Source of the DNA: Nitrospira sp.
Lineage (GTDB): Bacteria; Nitrospirota; Nitrospiria; Nitrospirales; UBA8639
DNA length: 64,000 bases
NCBI GenBank assembly: GCA_011523385.1
Contig: WTGX01000004.1
Location: forward strand, 186,001-250,000
Direction of reading: 5' to 3'
Below are positions 49,444-58,487 of this stretch, piece by piece (the stretch's first letter is position 1; each line of letters begins with the position of its first letter). The position numbers and the translations under genes are program-made. Below the pieces are notes generated by a model. That model was not told the origin of the DNA, did not search any database, and saw only the letters and a program-made list of their open reading frames with translations.

Positions 49444-50499
49444 TCAACGTCGGTAGCGCGGCCCAAGGGTCCGGTCTTCGTAGTTGGCAAACAGGCGTTT
49501 GGTTTCGGGATGGAGGACAAAACCTTTACCGTGCGCAATGTCCCGCGCGCGAAAGAACGGGGCGAGTTTTCCGGAAGGATCGAGGTAGGCCGCGCGAAGC
49601 GGGACCGAGCGGTTTCGATGATGGATCAGGTGACAGGACGTGGAACGGATCGAGTTGATCCAGGCGGCGATTTCGTCAGGGTTTCCGATGGAGGCCGACA
49701 GCAGCAGGAGCCGTGATTGCGCCGGAGCGAAAATAATCGTTTCTTCCCACACCACGCCCCGTTCCGCGTCGGCCAGAAATTGCGATTCATCCAGAATAAT
49801 CAAGCCCAAGGTATCCAGCCGCATGTCGATCTCGCCGCTTGCGGCATCGTACAGTAAATTCCGCAGGATTTCCGTGGTCATGATCAGGATGGGAGCCTGC
49901 GGATTGTCACGGCGGTCGCCCGTGAGAATACCGACTTGATCCGCACCGAAGAGCTGCGAAAACTCCGTCAGCTTTGTGTTTGAGAGTGCCTTCAAGGGAG
50001 ACGTGTAAATCACCGTTCGTTCGGCTTCGATGGCCCGTCGCATGGCCTCGATCGCCACGTAGGTCTTGCCGCTGCCCGTGGGGACGCTCAAGATCACGTC
50101 AGTAGTTGTCAGGCGGTCGATGGCGTCCCGTTGCCAGTCGTCAGGCTTGAAAGGCCGTGGCGGAGGCACGCCGAGCCCTTCAAGCAGCGCCTTCGTGCCG
50201 ATGGCCGGTTCGGTCGGGACGTGGTGATGCCGGGAAGGCGGGGCGGGGCGGGGCGGCGCATCGGGCTGAGGGTTCGGCTTGGCCGGTCTGTCCGGCTTGG
50301 AAGAGCGTGGAGGCTCCTGCAGGAAGGACGTGAGCGTCGTTTCGATTTCCGCCCGTTGCCCGGGTGACAGGGCCAGGAGTGATTGAATCAGCCGGGTTTT
50401 CCCCATGCGGAAGTGCCGGTGCACCCGGTTCTTCGCCAGCCGGTGAAGCAGACTGACGGGCAAGCCGGCCAAGTGTTGTGTTAATTCGTCGTTCGTCAT
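49444..50499 (-). CDS. Ski2-like helicase, RecA1 lobe as a separate protein
   Basis: A 351-residue protein that is only the first motor lobe of a superfamily 2 helicase. Motif I SVPTGSGKT (138-146), Ia TSPLKALSNTK, motif II DESQ (237-240) and motif III SAS (268-270) are present; motifs V and VI are absent. The N-terminal 110 residues are a SAP/wHTH-like helical stretch and a Pro-rich linker. The missing half is encoded 117 bases upstream (next feature), i.e. in reversed order relative to a normal helicase. The protein ends soon after motif III with no sign of a frameshift. Confidence 0.85.
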   Translation of the reverse strand: MTNDELTQHLAGLPVSLLHRLAKNRVHRHFRMGKTRLIQSLLALSPGQRAEIETTLTSFLQEPPRSSKPDRPAKPNPQPDAPPRPAPPSRHHHVPTEPAIGTKALLEGLGVPPPRPFKPDDWQRDAIDRLTTTDVILSVPTGSGKTYVAIEAMRRAIEAERTVIYTSPLKALSNTKLTEFSQLFGADQVGILTGDRRDNPQAPILIMTTEILRNLLYDAASGEIDMRLDTLGLIILDESQFLADAERGVVWEETIIFAPAQSRLLLLSASIGNPDEIAAWINSIRSTSCHLIHHRNRSVPLRAAYLDPSGKLAPFFRARDIAHGKGFVLHPETKRLFANYEDRTLGPRYRR

Positions 50500-50615
50500 G
50501 CGGCTGTTCGTTTGTTGCCTATGTGTCCAGTCTATACACCCTCCAAGGGAGAGGGTGTTGTGGAGCAGAAATTGTCAATGCCTAAGCGAACATTTACCGT
50601 TCTTCTCTGCGTCGT

Positions 50616-52601
50616 TCATGGCAATTCTTGCAGCACGTCCCGGCGCATGAGGTCCATGGCGTCTCTCGCAACGCCGGCCAGACCGGGATGGGTCGCTTTG
50701 AGTCCATGGACTTGCGAGAGATATTCCAGCGTCCTGGCCAGGAGCCGGTAGACGTCCCCTTCGGCCATGGTGGTCGGGCGAATCAGTTCGTTCCAGGGCA
50801 GGGCGGGCTCGGCGATCCACCGGTCGGCTATCGCTGCGACGTCCCACCTCAGGAGAGGCGGCTCTTCATACGCGGATAACGAGTGGGCGACCTTTCGCAC
50901 TTGTCCGAGGGTCGAGGTCAGGGCCGGATGGCGTCCGGGAAAGGAGGCCGGCCGGTCGTCGTCATGCGCAATGCTCGCCAGCACCCCGGCCAGTAAAGAG
51001 GCGGTGATGCCTTCAAATGCTCCCATCCTGATCAGTTCCGTGATGAGTAACGAATGGTTGATGCGAATCAGGCGCGCCCAGTCGCCCTCGGATGTCAGTT
51101 GGCACGCGGGCGTCAGGTAGCCGAATTTTTGCAATACCTCCACGTGTTGCTGGAAGCGGTGCCAGAGTTCGGTGCGCATGGCGTGAATGGTTTTCGTCAG
51201 TCGATGTTCTTCCTGGCGCAGCTTCAGGGCCTGCGGGTGGTCCTTTTGGCACGCCGGACGGGACGGACAGGTTGGACAGGGGAATTCGTCCTTGAGCGTT
51301 TCGGTCAGGACCGGGTTATCGGCACCGTCCTGATTGACGCGAATCGGAAGACGTCGTAAACGAGCGGGAAACTGTTCCAATGTTTCGATGGCGTGATTCA
51401 GGCTCTGGGGCGTGCACCAGGGAAACCGGTGGGACTCGGTGACGTCGATGACTTCGTCGATCACCGCGGTCACCGCGCTTGCGGGATATTCTATGATGCG
51501 TCCGCCGTTTCGCATGACGGTCAACATGGGAGCCCCTTGTCCACGGCTTCGATATTGCCGCAGGACGATAGCGTGATCCTTGGAAAGTTCGACTGCGCGA
51601 CCCGGCGTCAGGAACGCCAATTGCGCTGAGATTTCCGGTGGGTCGTGCTGCGTTTTCCGACGATGGTGCGAGCGGCGTTTCTTGGCCAGACTGAATGATT
51701 GCCACTGCGCAATCCAATCGGCGCATTCCCGTTGGCCATAGGTCTCCAGTTGCGTTTCCACGTCATCCAGCTTCGTTTCATACGCATCGGCTCGTTGGTT
51801 GAGCTGGAATTGCGCAAAACTCTTTTCCAGGATGGGTTGGATATGGTCGATGGAATGAGCTTTCAGGAGATTCAGCACCATGGGATAGGAAACGACAAAT
51901 TGACTGTCGATCGGCTCCGGGTGGTTCGTGAGCCCATTCGCAATGGGGCCGAGGTCGATGTACGGCGACGGCGTGACCACGACGAACCCCACGTAATCTT
52001 TCCCGCGTCTTCCGCCGCGGCCGGCGAGTTGTTGAATTTCATTGACGGTCAGTTCCGTGATGTCCCGGTCCTTGCGGACGCTCGATTGAGTTATCACGAC
52101 GGTGCGGGCGGGAAAATCCACCCCGGCGGCCAGGGTCGTGGTGGCGAAGACCGCATCCAGACACCCTTGACGCATGAGTTCTTCAACGGCGATTTTCCAG
52201 GACGGCAGGTGCCCGGCGTGATGGGCCGCCACACCATAGTGCTGAACCGTGGGGATCAGGGGATGGTTGGCAATACTGGGATATTCGGCAGTCATCTTGT
52301 CCAGCACGTCCGTGATGGCCGCCGACCGCGTGGGGGGAATGGGGTTCTGGCGGTGCTCGAAACACGCAATGGCTTCATCGCAGGCGCGCCGGGACGTCAA
52401 AAAGACGATGGCCGGGGTCAGACGCTGGTGTCGAAGGACGTGGAGCAGATCGACTGGGTGAATGGCCGGTGGCATGAACGGAGGAAAGTGTAACAGGAAC
52501 TTGTCGGGAGCACAAAGGAGACCGCCAATCGACGGAGACTTGGATTCGTGCAGGAGTTGCGTGGGGATGACGCTGCGATGACCCGTGAGCAGGTAACTCA
52601 T
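50616..52601 (-). CDS. Ski2-like helicase, RecA2 lobe plus DSHCT domain
   Basis: A protein of about 661 residues (start 52601; a frame to 52676 also exists) with the second motor lobe but no Walker A. VFLTSRRACDEAI (motif IV region), AAHHAGHLPSWK, ATTTLAAGVDFPAR (motif V) and QLAGRGGRRG (motif VI) are clear. The C-terminus matches the Ski2/Mtr4 DSHCT helical region (WHRFQQHVEVLQKFGYL, LTSEGDWARLIRINHSLLIT) and has a cysteine cluster CPTCPSRPAC. Together with the next gene it would rebuild one Ski2-type RNA/DNA helicase. It diverges from the DUF2791 operon. Confidence 0.85.
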   Translation of the reverse strand: MSYLLTGHRSVIPTQLLHESKSPSIGGLLCAPDKFLLHFPPFMPPAIHPVDLLHVLRHQRLTPAIVFLTSRRACDEAIACFEHRQNPIPPTRSAAITDVLDKMTAEYPSIANHPLIPTVQHYGVAAHHAGHLPSWKIAVEELMRQGCLDAVFATTTLAAGVDFPARTVVITQSSVRKDRDITELTVNEIQQLAGRGGRRGKDYVGFVVVTPSPYIDLGPIANGLTNHPEPIDSQFVVSYPMVLNLLKAHSIDHIQPILEKSFAQFQLNQRADAYETKLDDVETQLETYGQRECADWIAQWQSFSLAKKRRSHHRRKTQHDPPEISAQLAFLTPGRAVELSKDHAIVLRQYRSRGQGAPMLTVMRNGGRIIEYPASAVTAVIDEVIDVTESHRFPWCTPQSLNHAIETLEQFPARLRRLPIRVNQDGADNPVLTETLKDEFPCPTCPSRPACQKDHPQALKLRQEEHRLTKTIHAMRTELWHRFQQHVEVLQKFGYLTPACQLTSEGDWARLIRINHSLLITELIRMGAFEGITASLLAGVLASIAHDDDRPASFPGRHPALTSTLGQVRKVAHSLSAYEEPPLLRWDVAAIADRWIAEPALPWNELIRPTTMAEGDVYRLLARTLEYLSQVHGLKATHPGLAGVARDAMDLMRRDVLQELP

Positions 52602-52661
52602 GGCGCAACTCGTTGAGAATGAAAACGACAGAAGGCTGGAAAGCGTGTTGCGTTTCTCATT

Positions 52662-52710
52662 TTGGTTCTGACACACTGGGTAACTATAATAATGGGAACC
52701 TGAAGTTCCC
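52662..52710 (+). promoter_or_regulatory. Promoter and operator-like repeat of the DUF2791 operon
   Basis: A perfect -10 TATAAT (52685-52690) with a weak -35 TTGGTT (52662-52667) 17 bases upstream. Directly after it, GGGAACCTGAAGTTCCC (52694-52710) is a perfect 6-bp inverted repeat that would span the transcription start, as an operator or a 5' hairpin. Confidence 0.55.
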
Positions 52711-52754
52711 TTCCTTGTGGATCGCCTTTTGAGGCGCGTGGAAAGGAGTGATTG

Positions 52755-53525
52755 GTGGAGACCTTCGAACGGGCGTTCGGCAATACGGAAAGAGCCGCGG
52801 TTTCGACGCTACGGGCGATCAAAGACGTGGAAAAGCTGGCCAAGGCGCTACAAAAGGCAGCGAGGGAAGGGAACATCGGCGCCATCAAGCGAGAATGTTC
52901 AAGGCTGGATCCTACGCTGGATTCTCTAAAAGAAGAGGTGTCGAACGCAGTGGCCGTTTGGCCTTTCAAGGATGAAGAGGAAGAAGCATACCTCAGGGAT
53001 CACTATGCCGATGAACTTCGTAAGACCGCCGCGGAAAAGGGATTGGATCTCCGGGAACGGGACGGCATGCTGATTTCTCATCCGTCCATCGTTCGGATTC
53101 TGCCCGGTGACCGGGCCGTGAGAATCGATAAGAGTAAGAAGGCGACGCTACGACCGTCTCGCCTCACGGAAATCCTGGTCGAGCAGCAGAAAAAACCGCC
53201 GCGGTTCAGGTCGGATGCTTTCCTGAAGTCGTTATACGAGATGTACGTGCTCCTGGCGAAAGCCAAGCAAGGGACCGTTATCCCGTTAGCCATGATCTAT
53301 GAGGCGTTTACTTCCTGTCCCGGCAGCAAACGTGACTACAGCAAGATCGACTTTGCCAGGGACATCTATTTCCTGGAACAGAGTGATACGCTCTCCACCA
53401 GGTCGGGATACCGGGTCTCGTTCCCGTCTTCAACCGGCTCGAAAAAGGCCAAGGACACGTTCTCGTTCGTCGGTCCCGACAAACAGGTCGTCACGTATTA
53501 CGGAATCCAATTTTCCGGGGGCTGA
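52755..53525 (+). CDS. Unknown coiled-coil protein, first gene of DUF2791 operon
   Basis: A 256-residue soluble protein that I do not recognise. Residues 1-75 are helical with heptad character (LRAIKDVEKLAKALQKAARE), then a compact middle (HPSIVRILPGDRAVRIDKSKK) and a C-terminal part that might be a winged helix (DFARDIYFLEQSDTLSTRSG). The GTG at 52755 is preferred over the TTG at 52752 because GGAG lies 6 bases before it. The stop is 2 bases before the next ATG, so the three genes form one operon. A DNA-binding or adaptor role is possible but unproven. Confidence 0.8.
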   Translation: METFERAFGNTERAAVSTLRAIKDVEKLAKALQKAAREGNIGAIKRECSRLDPTLDSLKEEVSNAVAVWPFKDEEEEAYLRDHYADELRKTAAEKGLDLRERDGMLISHPSIVRILPGDRAVRIDKSKKATLRPSRLTEILVEQQKKPPRFRSDAFLKSLYEMYVLLAKAKQGTVIPLAMIYEAFTSCPGSKRDYSKIDFARDIYFLEQSDTLSTRSGYRVSFPSSTGSKKAKDTFSFVGPDKQVVTYYGIQFSGG

Positions 53526-53527
53526 TA

Positions 53528-54487
53528 ATGGCGCACACCATACCATTGCACGATTGGCTGCGGCACCTCGATGCCGAATACGTATCGACGTTCATCAAGG
53601 AGGGCGGTGCGTCCATCAAGTTTGCCGTGATGGAAGACGGCCGCAAGCCGCAGTTCTCCGAAGCCGTGGAGACCCGGGGCAGGGAATTGAATTACGCCGT
53701 TGTCAAACTTGACGCAGTGGAAACTAAGGTTCATATGCCCCAGGACGTGTTTTTCGGACTGGCGAAGCAGGTGGATTGGCGATTTCTGGCTCGCCTCATG
53801 ATCGTGCGGCTGGCTCGGGGGATCGGCTATGACGTCGACGCGATCAACCCCGGTGAGACGACGAACGTGTTTGAGGCCGTCGGAAAAAGAAACGGTCTTG
53901 ATTCACAATCCGTACTTCGTGAGTTGAGACGCGAATTGGAAACCAGGGTGAGCAAGGAATATCGCATGGACAAAGATTTCAGGGTGGCGATGACTTCCCT
54001 TTGCCTGTGTGAGAACGTTCGTCAGGATCAGGAATACGGCGGTCAGCCGCTGATCGATTGGTTGACGGGAACGAATACGAGGGTGAGCAGCGTGAAGTCA
54101 TTCTTCATCAATACCGGCATCAACCGGACGACGGCCAGACATTTCATTGAATCAGCCCTGTTCTGGTTCCGGCACGTGGGACACGCGGGGACGGTGATCG
54201 TCCTCGACAACTCCCGTATCATGCTGTCCCCCAACCCGAAGGACGGGGGCAGGTATTATACGAAAGCTATGGTCATGGACCACTACGAGCTTTTGCGGGA
54301 GTTCATCGACGGAACAGATCAATTGGCCGGAACGTTGATGGTGATCGTGACAAACGGCGCCTTCCTCGATGAAGACGCTCGTTCCAGGGGATTCGGCATC
54401 TACCAGGCCCTCAGGACAAGGATCATGGATGACGTCCGGGATAAAAACCTGGTGAATCCCATCGCGTCCATGGTACGACTCTCCTGA
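53528..54487 (+). CDS. BrxC/BrxD-like P-loop paralogue with degenerate ATP site
   Basis: A 319-residue protein that aligns by eye with DUF2791 ATPases but is altered at the catalytic positions. Where Walker A belongs it reads KEGGASIKFAV (24-34) with no GKS/T. The Walker B strand is TVIVLDNSR (222-230): the aspartate is kept but the catalytic glutamate is asparagine. The C-terminal stretch HYELLREFIDGT, LMVIVTNGAFLDEDARSRGFGIYQALRTRI resembles the conserved DUF2791 end. It probably partners the intact ATPase encoded next, as a pseudo-ATPase subunit. Confidence 0.75.
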   Translation: MAHTIPLHDWLRHLDAEYVSTFIKEGGASIKFAVMEDGRKPQFSEAVETRGRELNYAVVKLDAVETKVHMPQDVFFGLAKQVDWRFLARLMIVRLARGIGYDVDAINPGETTNVFEAVGKRNGLDSQSVLRELRRELETRVSKEYRMDKDFRVAMTSLCLCENVRQDQEYGGQPLIDWLTGTNTRVSSVKSFFINTGINRTTARHFIESALFWFRHVGHAGTVIVLDNSRIMLSPNPKDGGRYYTKAMVMDHYELLREFIDGTDQLAGTLMVIVTNGAFLDEDARSRGFGIYQALRTRIMDDVRDKNLVNPIASMVRLS

Positions 54488-54503
54488 AGCAAAGACGGAC
54501 CTC

Positions 54504-55787
54504 ATGAACGTTGAGACAGACAAGAAAGATTTGTTGACCTGCAGGCGGGCGCTGGAAGGGTTGCGGAACGGTGTCCCGAACGAGGCAGCCGTCAAGATCC
54601 TGGGTTGTCACCAACCGCAGGCAGAAAACCGGTTTCGGGAACTCCTGTCCCGGGCCATGAAACTGGACCGTCCGCCTTCCGGTGCTTTGGGCATGCTGGT
54701 TGCCGGTGATTTCGGTACGGGAAAATCGCACCTGCTCTCCTACCTGGAACATCAGGCGTTGTCACAAGGTTTCGTGTGCAGCAAATTGACCATCAGTAAA
54801 GAGACCCCTTTCTATAACCTGGAGAAGGTATTCAAGTCCGCTGTGGACCATGGACGGATACCGGACCGAACCGGGCAGCTCATGGGAGAACTCGGACTCC
54901 GGCTGAAAAGTTCTTCAGGGGCGTATGCCCGTTTTTTCCGGTGGGCCCATTCCGAACAGAACGGACTGCATCGTATCTTTCCTGCCAGCCTGATGGTTCA
55001 CGAACGGGCAAATGATTTTGAACTGATCAGCAACGTCATCTCGTTCTGGTCGGGCGAGCGGGTCAGGGTGTCCACGCTCAAAGACGGTCTCAGACAAATA
55101 GGGAAGTTGCCCGACTATCCCTTCAAGGCGCCGAAAGCGAAGGAACTACCCCCGCAACGGTTACGTTTTGCCACGGAGTTGATAAAAGGGGCCGGGTATA
55201 ACGGCTGGGTCGTCCTGTTGGATGAACTCGAATTAGTGGGTTCGTATACGCTGCCCCAAAGGGCCAGGTCCTACGCGGAGCTTGCCCGCTGGTTGGGAAA
55301 GGTCGAAGATGAAGCGTGTCCGGGGCTCGTCGTCGTCGGCACGGTGACGAGCGATTTCACCGCGGCCGTTTTGGATGATTCGGGCAAACAGGACCGCCAC
55401 AAGGCAGCCCAATGGTTGCGTTCACGTGGAGATGACGTCGTGGCAGCCGGGGCTGAAATGGGCATGACGATTCTTGAACGGGAAACGACTTCCTTAACCT
55501 CTCCGACTGACGAAGACGTGAACGCCACCATCGAGAAACTGAGAGAGATCTATAGCGTTGCTTACAATTGGGACGCTCCGCGAAAAGAAGGAAAGGCGGG
55601 CGGGGCGGGTTTTCAAGGCAGGATGAGGTACAAGGTGCGAGCGGCCATCAATGAATGGGACCTGTTGCGCCTGTACCCGAATGCGAGCCCTGAAACAGAA
55701 GGCACGGAGTTCAGTTCCAGATATGAAGAAGTTCCTGAACTGGAGCAGGAGACCAACGACCAGGCCGATGAGGGCGAAAGCCGGTAG
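54504..55787 (+). CDS. DUF2791 (BrxC/BrxD-like) ATPase
   Basis: A 427-residue P-loop ATPase of the BREX ATP-binding type. ALEGLRNGVPNEAAVKILGC at the N-terminus, Walker A GDFGTGKSHLLSYLE (68-82) and Walker B WVVLLDELELVG (235-246) are hallmarks of BrxD and its relatives. The C-terminal 30 residues are acidic. It is third in the operon, 16 bases after the degenerate paralogue. BrxD works with helicase BrxHI in type 2 BREX; here the nearest helicase is the divergent split Ski2-like pair. No BrxA, BrxB, BrxL, PglX or PglZ is present. Confidence 0.88.
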   Translation: MNVETDKKDLLTCRRALEGLRNGVPNEAAVKILGCHQPQAENRFRELLSRAMKLDRPPSGALGMLVAGDFGTGKSHLLSYLEHQALSQGFVCSKLTISKETPFYNLEKVFKSAVDHGRIPDRTGQLMGELGLRLKSSSGAYARFFRWAHSEQNGLHRIFPASLMVHERANDFELISNVISFWSGERVRVSTLKDGLRQIGKLPDYPFKAPKAKELPPQRLRFATELIKGAGYNGWVVLLDELELVGSYTLPQRARSYAELARWLGKVEDEACPGLVVVGTVTSDFTAAVLDDSGKQDRHKAAQWLRSRGDDVVAAGAEMGMTILERETTSLTSPTDEDVNATIEKLREIYSVAYNWDAPRKEGKAGGAGFQGRMRYKVRAAINEWDLLRLYPNASPETEGTEFSSRYEEVPELEQETNDQADEGESR

Positions 55788-55896
55788 GTGAGGGCAGCAG
55801 CGAGCGATTCCCGAATAATTCTCTTCTCAATAACTCCTCCCGCAAAGTATCTTCTGAAATTCGATTTCCCTGCCTCCTTTTTTGCAAGACTATTTG

Positions 55897-55933
55897 TATT
55901 GTAAATTATCCATGATATGGATAAAATGCAATA
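55897..55933. promoter_or_regulatory. 37-bp palindromic operator-like site
   Basis: TTATCCATGATATGGATAA (55906-55924) is a perfect 8-bp inverted repeat with a 3-base centre; outer arms TATTG and CAATA (55897-55901, 55929-55933) share the same axis. It abuts the ATG of the AAA/DUF4143 gene, in a very AT-rich stretch. Confidence 0.5.
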
Positions 55934-55935
55934 AT

Positions 55936-57117
55936 ATGATTGATAGGCTTATTACACGTGACATCGAAGAGGCTCTTCACCGTCAGGCTGCCGTCGCCCT
56001 GATTGGACCACGGCAGGTCGGCAAGACCACGTTGGCACTGGCGATCGGTCGCCCGCGTAATGCGCTTTATCTTGATCTCGAAGACCGGGACGACCGCAAC
56101 CGGCTCGCTGAACCCGTGTTGTTCTTCGACAATGCGGAAGATCGGCTCGTCATCCTCGATGAAATCCACCGGATGCCGGAATTGTTTCAGATCCTGCGTG
56201 GCGTTATCGACAGGGGCAGACGTAAAGGAAAGGGCAAGGGTCGGTTTCTGATCCTGGGGTCCGCCTCGATCGACTTGTTGCGCCAATCGGGCGAAACTCT
56301 GGCCGGGCGCATCGCGTACATCGACATGGCACCCTTTTCCGCACTTGAGATCGAAGACGCGCGCCTGTCGCGTGAGCGGCTGTGGTTGCGTGGCGGGTTT
56401 CCTGACAGCTATTTGGCCGACAGCGACCGGGACAGCCTGGCCTTGCGCAAGGACTTCATTCGCACCTACCTGGAGCGTGACGTTGCGTCGTTCGGTTCTC
56501 GTGTCCCGGCCACGTTCCTCGATCGGATGTGGACGATGCTTGCACACCGTCAGGGAGCGATCCTGAATGCCTCGGATCTTGCCAGGGCGCTGGAGGTGAG
56601 CGCGCAATCGGTTACCCGTTACGTTGATCTGTTGGCTGACTTGCTGCTGGTACGCCGGTTACCGCCATTCCGGATCAATATCGGCAAACGTCTCGTCAAG
56701 TCGCCGAAAGTGTACGTGCGAGACAGCGGTCTGGTCCATGCCCTGTTGAGCATTGCGTCGCTGGAGCAGCTCGCGGGACATCCTGTGGTTGGCAGGAGTT
56801 GGGAAGGATTCATTATCGAGACGCTGCTTGCCGTCCTGCCTCGACCGGTGAAACCGTTCTTCTACCGAACGAGTGCCGGTGCCGAAATTGACCTCGTGAT
56901 CGAGCATGACGATGGCGCGCTGTGGGCAATCGAGGTCAAACGTTCGCTGTCCGCCAGCGTCGAGCGGGGATTCCACCTTGCCTGTGCGGACGTTGAGCCA
57001 TCTCGTGCCTTTGTCGTCCATGCCGGTGACGATCGCTACCCGATATCGAGAACCCTGGAGGCAGTCGGTCTTCGGGAATTCACCGCAAAACTGCGTGCCA
57101 TGTATTCCAGGAACTGA
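55936..57117 (+). CDS. AAA-14/DUF4143 ATPase
   Basis: A 393-residue protein: AAA domain with Walker A GPRQVGKT (24-31), Walker B LVILDEIHRM, sensor FLILGSASI, then the C-terminal DUF4143 nuclease-like domain with the EIDLVIEHDDGALWAIEVKRS segment (D-x-E-x-K pattern of PD-(D/E)XK folds). ATG 55936 is preferred; the longer frame to 55882 reads through the palindrome. Such genes are frequent in accessory DNA; their role is unknown, perhaps toxin- or phage-related. Confidence 0.9.
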   Translation: MIDRLITRDIEEALHRQAAVALIGPRQVGKTTLALAIGRPRNALYLDLEDRDDRNRLAEPVLFFDNAEDRLVILDEIHRMPELFQILRGVIDRGRRKGKGKGRFLILGSASIDLLRQSGETLAGRIAYIDMAPFSALEIEDARLSRERLWLRGGFPDSYLADSDRDSLALRKDFIRTYLERDVASFGSRVPATFLDRMWTMLAHRQGAILNASDLARALEVSAQSVTRYVDLLADLLLVRRLPPFRINIGKRLVKSPKVYVRDSGLVHALLSIASLEQLAGHPVVGRSWEGFIIETLLAVLPRPVKPFFYRTSAGAEIDLVIEHDDGALWAIEVKRSLSASVERGFHLACADVEPSRAFVVHAGDDRYPISRTLEAVGLREFTAKLRAMYSRN

Positions 57118-57167
57118 CTCTCTTCATCGGAGAGGGAACTATCAAGAATAGTTGACGGCTTCTTCTG

Positions 57168-57239
57168 TGTAGCCGCGCCATCTTATGGTGCTTCTTTGTC
57201 TTGACGGCCTCTCCAGCCGCATAAGATGCGGCAGCTACA
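57168..57239. repeat. Imperfect inverted repeat (hairpin, about 72 bases)
   Basis: TGTAGCCGCGCCATCTTATG (57168-57187) and CATAAGATGCGGCAGCTACA (57220-57239) are complementary in 17 of 20 positions around a 32-base loop. It lies between the DUF4143 and MFS genes and looks like a small non-autonomous element. Confidence 0.6.
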
Positions 57240-57311
57240 ACTGAAAGAGGCTACTGGAGCACAAAAGGCAGCGGGAGAAACTTGTCAACGAATGAGTGAT
57301 CACGTACGCGA

Positions 57312-58487
57312 ATGACCGTTAGCCCGATATTCGTGCTGCTGTGCGGCGTGGGGTTTTGCTCCTTTGTCAGCTACAACCTGGTCCGCATGCCGGCATTGGC
57401 GCCGTTCGCCGAATCGTTCGGGGCCGGACCGGTCATGGTGGGATTCATCGTCGCGGCTTCGACCATGACGGGAGTCCTTCTCAAGCTGCCGGTCGGAACG
57501 CTGTCCGACCTGGTGAACCGCTCACGCTTGATGCTGGTTGGCGTCCTGGCCTTTGCGCTACCCCCCTTTGTGTATCCGTTGGTGCCTAACCTGGAAGTTC
57601 TGACGGTGTTGCGGGTGGTCCATGGATTGGCTACGGCCGTCTTTACGCCGTTGGTTCTCGCCATGGTTGCGGAATTGTATCCCGCCGCGAGAGGCGCGGC
57701 CTTGGGCTGGTATACCTCGGCCGCGCAGGGTGGAGGACTGTTGGGCCCGGTGCTGGGAGGATGGATCATCGATCGGGCCGGCTATACGGAAACGTTTTTG
57801 ACCGGTGGCGGGTTTGGGCTGGTCGGGCTCGCGTTGTATCTGGCGCTTTGGTGGCGCTATCCGGTCCCGTCGCGTGCCGTGAAGCTGGATGCGAAGACTC
57901 TTCTCTTGAACGTGCTGCATGGTTTACGCGCCGTGTTGCGACATTTCCAGATGGTGGCGGTAAGCGTGACGGAGGCCTCGAAGATGGTGGCCAACGGCAC
58001 CCTGATGGCGTTCCTGCCGTTATACGGGCTTTCCATCGGACTGAGTTTGGCGGAGAGCGGCTTGCTGTTCGGAATACAGGGGTTCACGTCGTTTCTCTCC
58101 AAACCGATTATGGGGCGCGTGTCCGATCGCGTCGGGCGACGACCGCTGATCACGCTGGGTTTGCTGATTTGCGGCATAGCCATCATGGCCGTTCCTCAGA
58201 CGACTCACTTGGGCTGGCTGTCCCTGTGCGCGGCAGGTTTCGGATTCGGAGAAGCGATCATTACGTCGTCGTCGGCCGCGATGATTGCGGATCTGGGAAA
58301 CGCCGAGAACGTCGGAGCCGGCATGGGGTTGCGCGGAACCATCATGGATATCGGGCATGCCAGCGGGCCGATCGTGGCAGGTGTGCTTGTCGCCGCAATC
58401 AGTTATACTGGGGCGTTCACCATGATCGGATGCCTGCAAGTGATCACGGCAGCAGGGTTTTGGGTGTCGACCAGCCGGCGGTTTTGA
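57312..58487 (+). CDS. MFS transporter
   Basis: A 391-residue membrane protein with about 12 hydrophobic helices in two halves. The loop 2-3 motif GTLSDLVNRSRLMLVG and its repeat in the second half, GRVSDRVGRRPLITLGL, mark the major facilitator superfamily (drug/proton-antiporter-like). The substrate cannot be inferred. A gene for a 42-residue membrane protein follows. Confidence 0.92.
   Translation: MTVSPIFVLLCGVGFCSFVSYNLVRMPALAPFAESFGAGPVMVGFIVAASTMTGVLLKLPVGTLSDLVNRSRLMLVGVLAFALPPFVYPLVPNLEVLTVLRVVHGLATAVFTPLVLAMVAELYPAARGAALGWYTSAAQGGGLLGPVLGGWIIDRAGYTETFLTGGGFGLVGLALYLALWWRYPVPSRAVKLDAKTLLLNVLHGLRAVLRHFQMVAVSVTEASKMVANGTLMAFLPLYGLSIGLSLAESGLLFGIQGFTSFLSKPIMGRVSDRVGRRPLITLGLLICGIAIMAVPQTTHLGWLSLCAAGFGFGEAIITSSSAAMIADLGNAENVGAGMGLRGTIMDIGHASGPIVAGVLVAAISYTGAFTMIGCLQVITAAGFWVSTSRRF

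What the first reader, a model, noticed from the sequence alone, without database searches (positions are those of the whole stretch)
49444..55787. Candidate BREX-related system: split Ski2-like helicase back to back with a DUF2791 ATPase, its inactive paralogue and an unknown protein
Seen: a divergent locus of five genes. Plus strand: unknown coiled-coil protein, DUF2791-like protein, DUF2791 ATPase, with 2- and 16-base gaps. Minus strand: two halves of a helicase. Known: BrxC/BrxD ATPases and helicases act together in BREX phage defence. Inferred: this is a compact relative that has no methylase, PglZ, BrxA/B or Lon protease. I know no described system with exactly this set, and a shared intergenic region suggests co-regulation.
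Basis: partly seen in the sequence, partly recalled or inferred. Interest (0 to 1): 0.85.

Follow-up and report, generated by a model that had tools for sequence, protein, structure and literature searches.

The report
Undescribed ATPase module beside unrelated helicase
A three-gene module (an unknown DNA-binding-like protein, a dead ATPase and its live partner) sits by chance next to an ordinary housekeeping helicase; in other bacterial phyla the same three genes usually form a larger operon with a DNA-motor/nuclease, sometimes among known antivirus genes, so this looks like part of a virus-defence system not found in the papers searched.

Summary
The genes are real, but this is not one five-gene system. 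The Ski2-like helicase pair is a core gene of the whole order (189/197 genomes) and independent of the operon (A in 29/197). Operon A-B-C (52752-55787) is a separate, horizontally acquired module: in the genus only 3/14 genomes carry it, its synonymous divergence exceeds most flank genes, and its tree places it with Chloroflexota/Acidobacteriota copies. It lies where several genus members carry a ClC channel gene, whose 3' tail remains. B (0/109 with Walker A) and C (105/106) are a conserved dead/live BrxD-superfamily ATPase pair. Outside the Nitrospirales the operon is usually A-B-C-D-E, E being an SNF2 helicase, often with an intact Mrr nuclease domain (23 of 32 loci with enough sequence). 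At least four such loci adjoin known defence genes (DUF499/MTase/PLD-helicase, Zac, HsdR, DpdF-like). The window lacks D and E; one congener has A-B-C-D. It is not BREX (no PglZ in the genus; BrxD model 56 bits against a cut-off of 350), Shango or Zorya, and I found no description of this set. Best reading: the ATPase core of an undescribed, probably anti-phage, loader plus translocase-nuclease system, here stripped. No function was tested.

The parts
52752..53525 (+). A: unknown 257-aa protein (start TTG 52752 or GTG 52755); N-terminal helical hairpin/coiled coil, C-terminal alpha/beta part
   Evidence: ORF; no Pfam/NCBIfam/PADLOC family; AlphaFold2 model pLDDT 92.9 from 35 sequences; present in 16/16 genomes from other phyla that have BC; dN/dS 0.18-0.26
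53528..54487 (+). B: inactive BrxD-superfamily ATPase, no P-loop
   Evidence: PF10923 E=1.3e-11; Walker A in 0 of 109 B domains; profile-profile homology to C E=1.1e-5, prob 82%
54504..55787 (+). C: active BrxD-superfamily (ORC/Cdc6-like AAA+) ATPase; Walker A GDFGTGKS, Walker B VVLLDELEL
   Evidence: PF10923 E=8.8e-18; Walker A in 105 of 106 C domains; fused to B in the Nitrospira relatives
52479..52676 (-). Scar: 5' extension of the helC ORF that contains a 27-aa remnant of the C-terminus of a ClC chloride-channel gene present at this place in congeners
50616..52478 (-). helC: RecA2 + stalk + DSHCT half of the Ski2-like helicase; NOT part of the module
   Evidence: PF08148, PF00271; core in the order; full-length 619-620 aa in congeners
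49444..50499 (-). helN: RecA1 (DEAD) half of the Ski2-like helicase; NOT part of the module
   Evidence: PF00270 E=9.8e-21; in 14/14 genus genomes
55882..57117 (+). AAA_14/DUF4143 gene downstream; NOT part of the module (absent next to ABC in G030, present without ABC in G003, G025, G050)

Best explanation
A-B-C is the ATPase core of an undescribed system whose fuller form is the operon A-B-C-D-E. Shown: A, B and C almost always occur together and in that order; B is a dead and C a live ATPase of the BrxD superfamily; outside the Nitrospirales an SNF2 helicase E, often with an intact Mrr nuclease domain, and a small protein D usually follow; the module is patchy, horizontally moved and sometimes sits among known defence genes. 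Inferred: B and C form a mixed AAA+ ring or heterodimer around DNA, as ORC/Cdc6-type helicase loaders do; A is the DNA-contacting adaptor that tells it where to load; ATP hydrolysis by C, with B as regulatory partner, loads or licenses E, which moves along invading DNA and cuts it. In the window D and E are gone, so the module must act with another effector, act only as a DNA-binding sensor or blocker, or be on its way out. Purifying selection (dN/dS 0.15-0.26) argues that it was still under selection until recently. The neighbouring Ski2-like helicase is an unrelated core gene.
For: ABC order conserved in all intact loci; 23 of 32 non-Nitrospirales loci with enough sequence carry E next to C or D. 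E = SNF2 + Helicase_C, with Mrr_cat in the longer form; Mrr D...QxK motif intact in all 9 Mrr-bearing copies of the 17 aligned, SNF2 motifs in 17/17. Walker A: B 0/109, C 105/106. A in 16/16 genomes with BC. D directly after ABC in congener G035, cut by the contig end. Patchy: Chloroflexota 17/400, Desulfobacterota 9/395 with a decayed copy; 3/14 in the genus. HGT: own ABC groups with a Chloroflexota draft genome inside the genus clade at 100% SH-aLRT, next to Chloroflexota/Acidobacteriota copies; dS 1.18 (A) and 1.24 (B) against 0.15-0.28 in most flank genes. Defence neighbours: L187, L202, L206/L188, L194.
Against: No function tested here or found published. In the sister genera a fused form (A-BC-BC'-histidine kinase-response regulator) is near-core (A in 26/35, C in 33/35), which fits a housekeeping or signalling role better than defence. 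Eight loci in other phyla and the window have ABC alone, those checked mostly in ordinary surroundings. Most sampled loci had no PADLOC neighbour and no random-locus control was run. C not on phages; A not in viral contigs or plasmids; C only one weak viral hit and two weak plasmid hits. A's fold gave no informative match, so DNA binding by A is inference.
Confidence: 0.55

Rival explanations
1. ABC is a domesticated chromosomal machine (DNA maintenance or stress signalling) rather than defence; the ABCDE form is one specialised use of it.
For: Near-core in sister genera with a fused BC duplicated and followed by a Tll0287-type sensor kinase and response regulator; a third BC paralogue with its own conserved ~444-aa neighbour; ABC-only loci in ordinary contexts in Acidobacteriota and Actinomycetota.
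Against: Patchy elsewhere; strain-variable, horizontally moved and 3/14 in the window's own genus; at least four ABCDE loci adjoin defence genes.
Confidence: 0.25
2. The window's copy is a non-functional leftover of an ABCDE system that lost its effector genes D and E.
For: No D or E ortholog in the own genome; congener G035 keeps D; decayed A copies exist elsewhere (G1104).
Against: Three intact ORFs with dN/dS 0.15-0.26 against two congeners; the same DE-less form is kept in G030 and in Chloroflexota genome G244.
Confidence: 0.15
3. One reading: one divergent five-gene BREX-related system that includes the split Ski2 helicase.
For: Adjacency in the window and in G030.
Against: Helicase core in 189/197 genomes of the order, ABC in few; in G035 the helicase adjoins a ClC gene and ABC lies on another contig; no other ABC locus seen has this helicase beside it.
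Confidence: 0.03

Closest known systems
BREX type 2 BrxD-BrxHI dyad
   Same: BrxD-superfamily ORC/Cdc6-like ATPase paired with a helicase; proposed helicase-loading role (PMC12839542)
   Different: Two ATPases (dead + live), unknown protein A, helicase is SNF2(-Mrr) instead of Lhr/Ski2-like BrxHI; no PglZ, PglX, PglW or BrxC; BrxD equivalog score 56 of the required 350 bits
Shango (SngA TerB, SngB ATPase, SngC helicase)
   Same: Small partner + ATPase + helicase logic (PMC10250203); C of L184 hits the SngB model at E=3e-9
   Different: No TerB protein found by Pfam, extra inactive ATPase, different helicase family, weak SngB score (24-35 bits)
DUF499-centred BREX-Related (BR) systems
   Same: AAA+ ATPase with SNF2 helicase, often with a nuclease domain (PMC12839542)
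   Different: No DUF499 ATPase, no methyltransferase within ABCDE; in L187 a DUF499 system is a separate neighbour
Zorya (ZorD)
   Same: E's best PADLOC model is ZorD, an SNF2 helicase with Mrr-like nuclease
   Different: No ZorA, ZorB or ZorC match among A-D; ATPase pair instead of a membrane motor

Membership tests
BREX | PglZ phosphatase-like protein encoded in the genome | tested here: not met
   PF08665: 0 of 14 genus genomes, with controls ringing
BREX | ATPase passes the BrxD equivalog cut-off (NF033438, 350 bits) | tested here: not met
   C 56.0 bits, B 36.8 bits
BREX | PglX/BrxX methyltransferase and BrxC in the locus | tested here: not met
   No such match among the locus genes; C hits BrxC only at E=0.0026
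BrxC/BrxD ATPase superfamily (PF10923) | Pfam gathering score | tested here: met
   B 44.6 and C 64.8 bits against a cut-off of 22.2
Shango | TerB-domain SngA | tested here: not met
   A has no Pfam, NCBIfam or Shango match
Shango | SngB ATPase | tested here: inconclusive
   C hits SngB weakly: 23.9 bits in the window, 34.5 bits in L184
Zorya | ZorA/ZorB motor and ZorC | tested here: not met
   No match for A-D in PADLOC
DUF499 BR / HMA-type systems | DUF499 ATPase and methyltransferase in the operon | tested here: not met
   No DUF499 match for B or C
Anti-phage defence system | Protects cells from phage | not testable with these tools
   Only indirect evidence: context, patchiness, HGT
Ski2-like (Mtr4/Ski2) helicases (neighbour genes) | RecA1, RecA2 and DSHCT aligned to Mtr4/Ski2 chains | tested here: met
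   helN and helC match RecA1 and the RecA2 region of the same DOB1 and SKI2 chains; DSHCT E=6.6e-22

The most novel reading that the evidence does not exclude
A-B-C-D-E is a previously undescribed prokaryotic defence system in which an obligate dead/live pair of ORC/Cdc6-type ATPases, guided by protein A, loads an SNF2 translocase-nuclease onto invading DNA; A-B-C alone (as in the window) and the fused, two-component-linked form of Nitrospira relatives are effector-less or re-purposed derivatives.
Probability: 0.5. Interest if true: 0.75.

Novelty: new variant of a known kind. Interest (0 to 1): 0.6.

Why it matters
It would add a multi-phylum candidate defence system built around a helicase-loader-like ATPase pair with a strictly conserved inactive member, which makes the proposed 'loader' role of BrxD-type ATPases testable in a small operon without methylation. 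It also shows how an ATPase core can move and persist without its nuclease, and corrects a false link to a core helicase.

Tried and rejected
Helicase as a partner: rejected by distribution. Co-regulation by the shared intergenic region: a perfect 6+5+6 inverted repeat (52694-52710) upstream of A is not conserved in relatives and a repeat of that size arises in about 25% of shuffles; promoter-like hits are not above chance. AAA_14/DUF4143 gene as a partner: variable independently of ABC. Fold of A: single-sequence model poor; the 35-sequence model is good, but Foldseek found nothing at E<=0.001 and VIA-align matched mainly the helical hairpin (residues 1-82) to generic coiled coils, so the C-terminal part is untested and no fold claim is made. 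A against D profile comparison: nothing. PDB relatives of BC: only a helicase loader at E=0.075. Search for an E ortholog in the genus: only generic SNF2 proteins below 64 bits, none in the own genome. Literature: DUF2791 and BrxD-like gave no paper; Nitrospira + defence + BREX and SNF2/Mrr searches gave no description of this set among the titles and abstracts seen.

Full report
What is there. The five ORFs exist with the gaps described. On the plus strand: A (52752-53525), B (53528-54487), C (54504-55787). B and C both belong to Pfam PF10923 BrxC_BrxD (44.6 and 64.8 bits, cut-off 22.2); A matches nothing. On the minus strand are two halves of a Mtr4/Ski2-type helicase: helN (RecA1) and helC (RecA2, stalk, DSHCT).

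The helicase is a bystander. helC was found in 189 of 197 genomes of the order and helN in 14 of 14 of the genus; A in 29 of 197 and C in 36 of 197. Across the order helC and helN keep the same reversed gene order (29 of 30 loci read). In congeners the gene next to helC varies: a ClC channel, a DUF4143 ATPase, a huge Calx-beta ORF, a GDSL autotransporter, or nothing. In the window a 27-residue remnant of the ClC protein precedes helC, so the ORF's first 66 residues are not helicase; helC starts at about 52478. In G035 the ClC gene is intact beside the helicase and ABC lies on another contig.

ABC is a module of its own. In sister genera B and C are fused into a protein of about 760-900 aa, usually in an operon A-BC-BC'-histidine kinase-response regulator, with a further BC paralogue elsewhere. 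A was present in all 16 such genomes searched whole. Outside the Nitrospirales, 23 of 32 loci with at least 2.4 kb beyond C have E directly after C or after a small D. E is an SNF2 helicase, in the longer form with a C-terminal Mrr nuclease domain whose D...QxK motif is intact in 9 of 9. Its best PADLOC models are ZorD and DpdE. The window's genome has neither D nor an E ortholog; congener G035 has A-B-C-D up to its contig end.

The ATPase pair. Walker A is present in 105 of 106 C and 0 of 109 B domains. B and C are homologous (hhalign E=1.1e-5, probability 82%) with the P-loop region of B replaced. That the dead partner is always kept is the clearest mechanistic clue: as in ORC/Cdc6-type loaders it may be a structural or regulatory subunit. 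This is inference from the family, for which PMC12839542 proposes helicase loading by BrxD.

Mobility. In the genus 3 of 14 genomes carry A. Between the window and G030, dS is 1.18 (A), 1.24 (B) and 0.62 (C) against 0.15-0.28 for era, recO, helN and helC and 0.54 for the MFS gene; dN/dS is 0.15-0.26. In the B+C tree the window, G030, G035 and a Chloroflexota genome (G244) form one clade, next to Chloroflexota and Acidobacteriota copies and far from the sister genera of its own family (quick method, SH-aLRT only; G244 is a draft genome, so misbinning is not excluded). A agrees: 40-44% identity to L199, L202 and L205 against 31-36% to the family. In other phyla it is patchy: 17/400 Chloroflexota, 9/395 Desulfobacterota including decayed copies. 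C was not found on phages, A not on plasmids or viral contigs; C gave two weak plasmid hits and one weak viral-contig hit.

Defence context. L187: ABCDE starts a few bases after a DUF499 / DUF1156 methyltransferase / PLD-helicase set. L202: ABCDE lies between a type I R subunit plus an Orf5/HEC-06 protein and ZacB/ZacC. L206 (and by shared cluster L188): a type I R subunit is just upstream. L194: a DpdF/UvrD-like protein in the locus. Other loci had no PADLOC neighbour or, for ABC-only loci, mostly ordinary neighbours. There was no random control.

Verdict. The most likely reading (0.55) is that ABC is the loader-like ATPase core of an undescribed SNF2/Mrr-based, probably anti-phage system, present here without its effector. 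The main rival (0.25) is a domesticated chromosomal role, suggested by the near-core fused form in sister genera. Membership in BREX, Shango, Zorya or the DUF499 systems was tested and at least one defining feature failed in each. Literature searches found no description, but most subscription papers and recent preprints are not in the library.

Noticed in passing
49444-52478: A split Ski2/Mtr4-like helicase in reversed gene order (RecA2-DSHCT gene upstream of the RecA1 gene) is core and order-wide (29 of 30 loci; 36 of 37 order genomes, 0 of 111 other genomes of the phylum at E<=1e-60). A presumably heterodimeric helicase that marks a whole order; it deserves its own study.
   Followed up: partly
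52479-52676: 27-residue remnant of a ClC chloride channel (448 aa, PF00654) that is intact at this place in several congeners: the scar of a replacement or deletion.
   Followed up: yes
49444-57312 and L126-L135: The helC-MFS interval, and in one genome the helC-helN gap, is a variable spot in the genus: ClC, DUF4143 ATPase, a 3181-aa Calx-beta ORF, a GDSL autotransporter, a 1862-aa ORF, or empty.
   Followed up: partly
L063, L067, L072, L069-L071: Nitrospira-family operon A-BC(-BC')-histidine kinase (Tll0287-like sensor in some)-response regulator, plus a separate BC paralogue followed by a conserved ~444-aa protein without Pfam family.
   Followed up: partly
L199:7773-14047: An Acidobacteriota ABC-only copy lies in ordinary surroundings (DUF1501 protein upstream, ankyrin-repeat protein downstream), unlike the ABCDE copies near defence genes.
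   Followed up: no
L280, L282 (G1104:C6): Pseudogene fragments of A with several stops in a Desulfobacterota genome: the module also decays.
   Followed up: no
52694-52710: Perfect inverted repeat GGGAAC-N5-GTTCCC about 45 bases upstream of A; not conserved in relatives and not beyond chance.
   Followed up: yes
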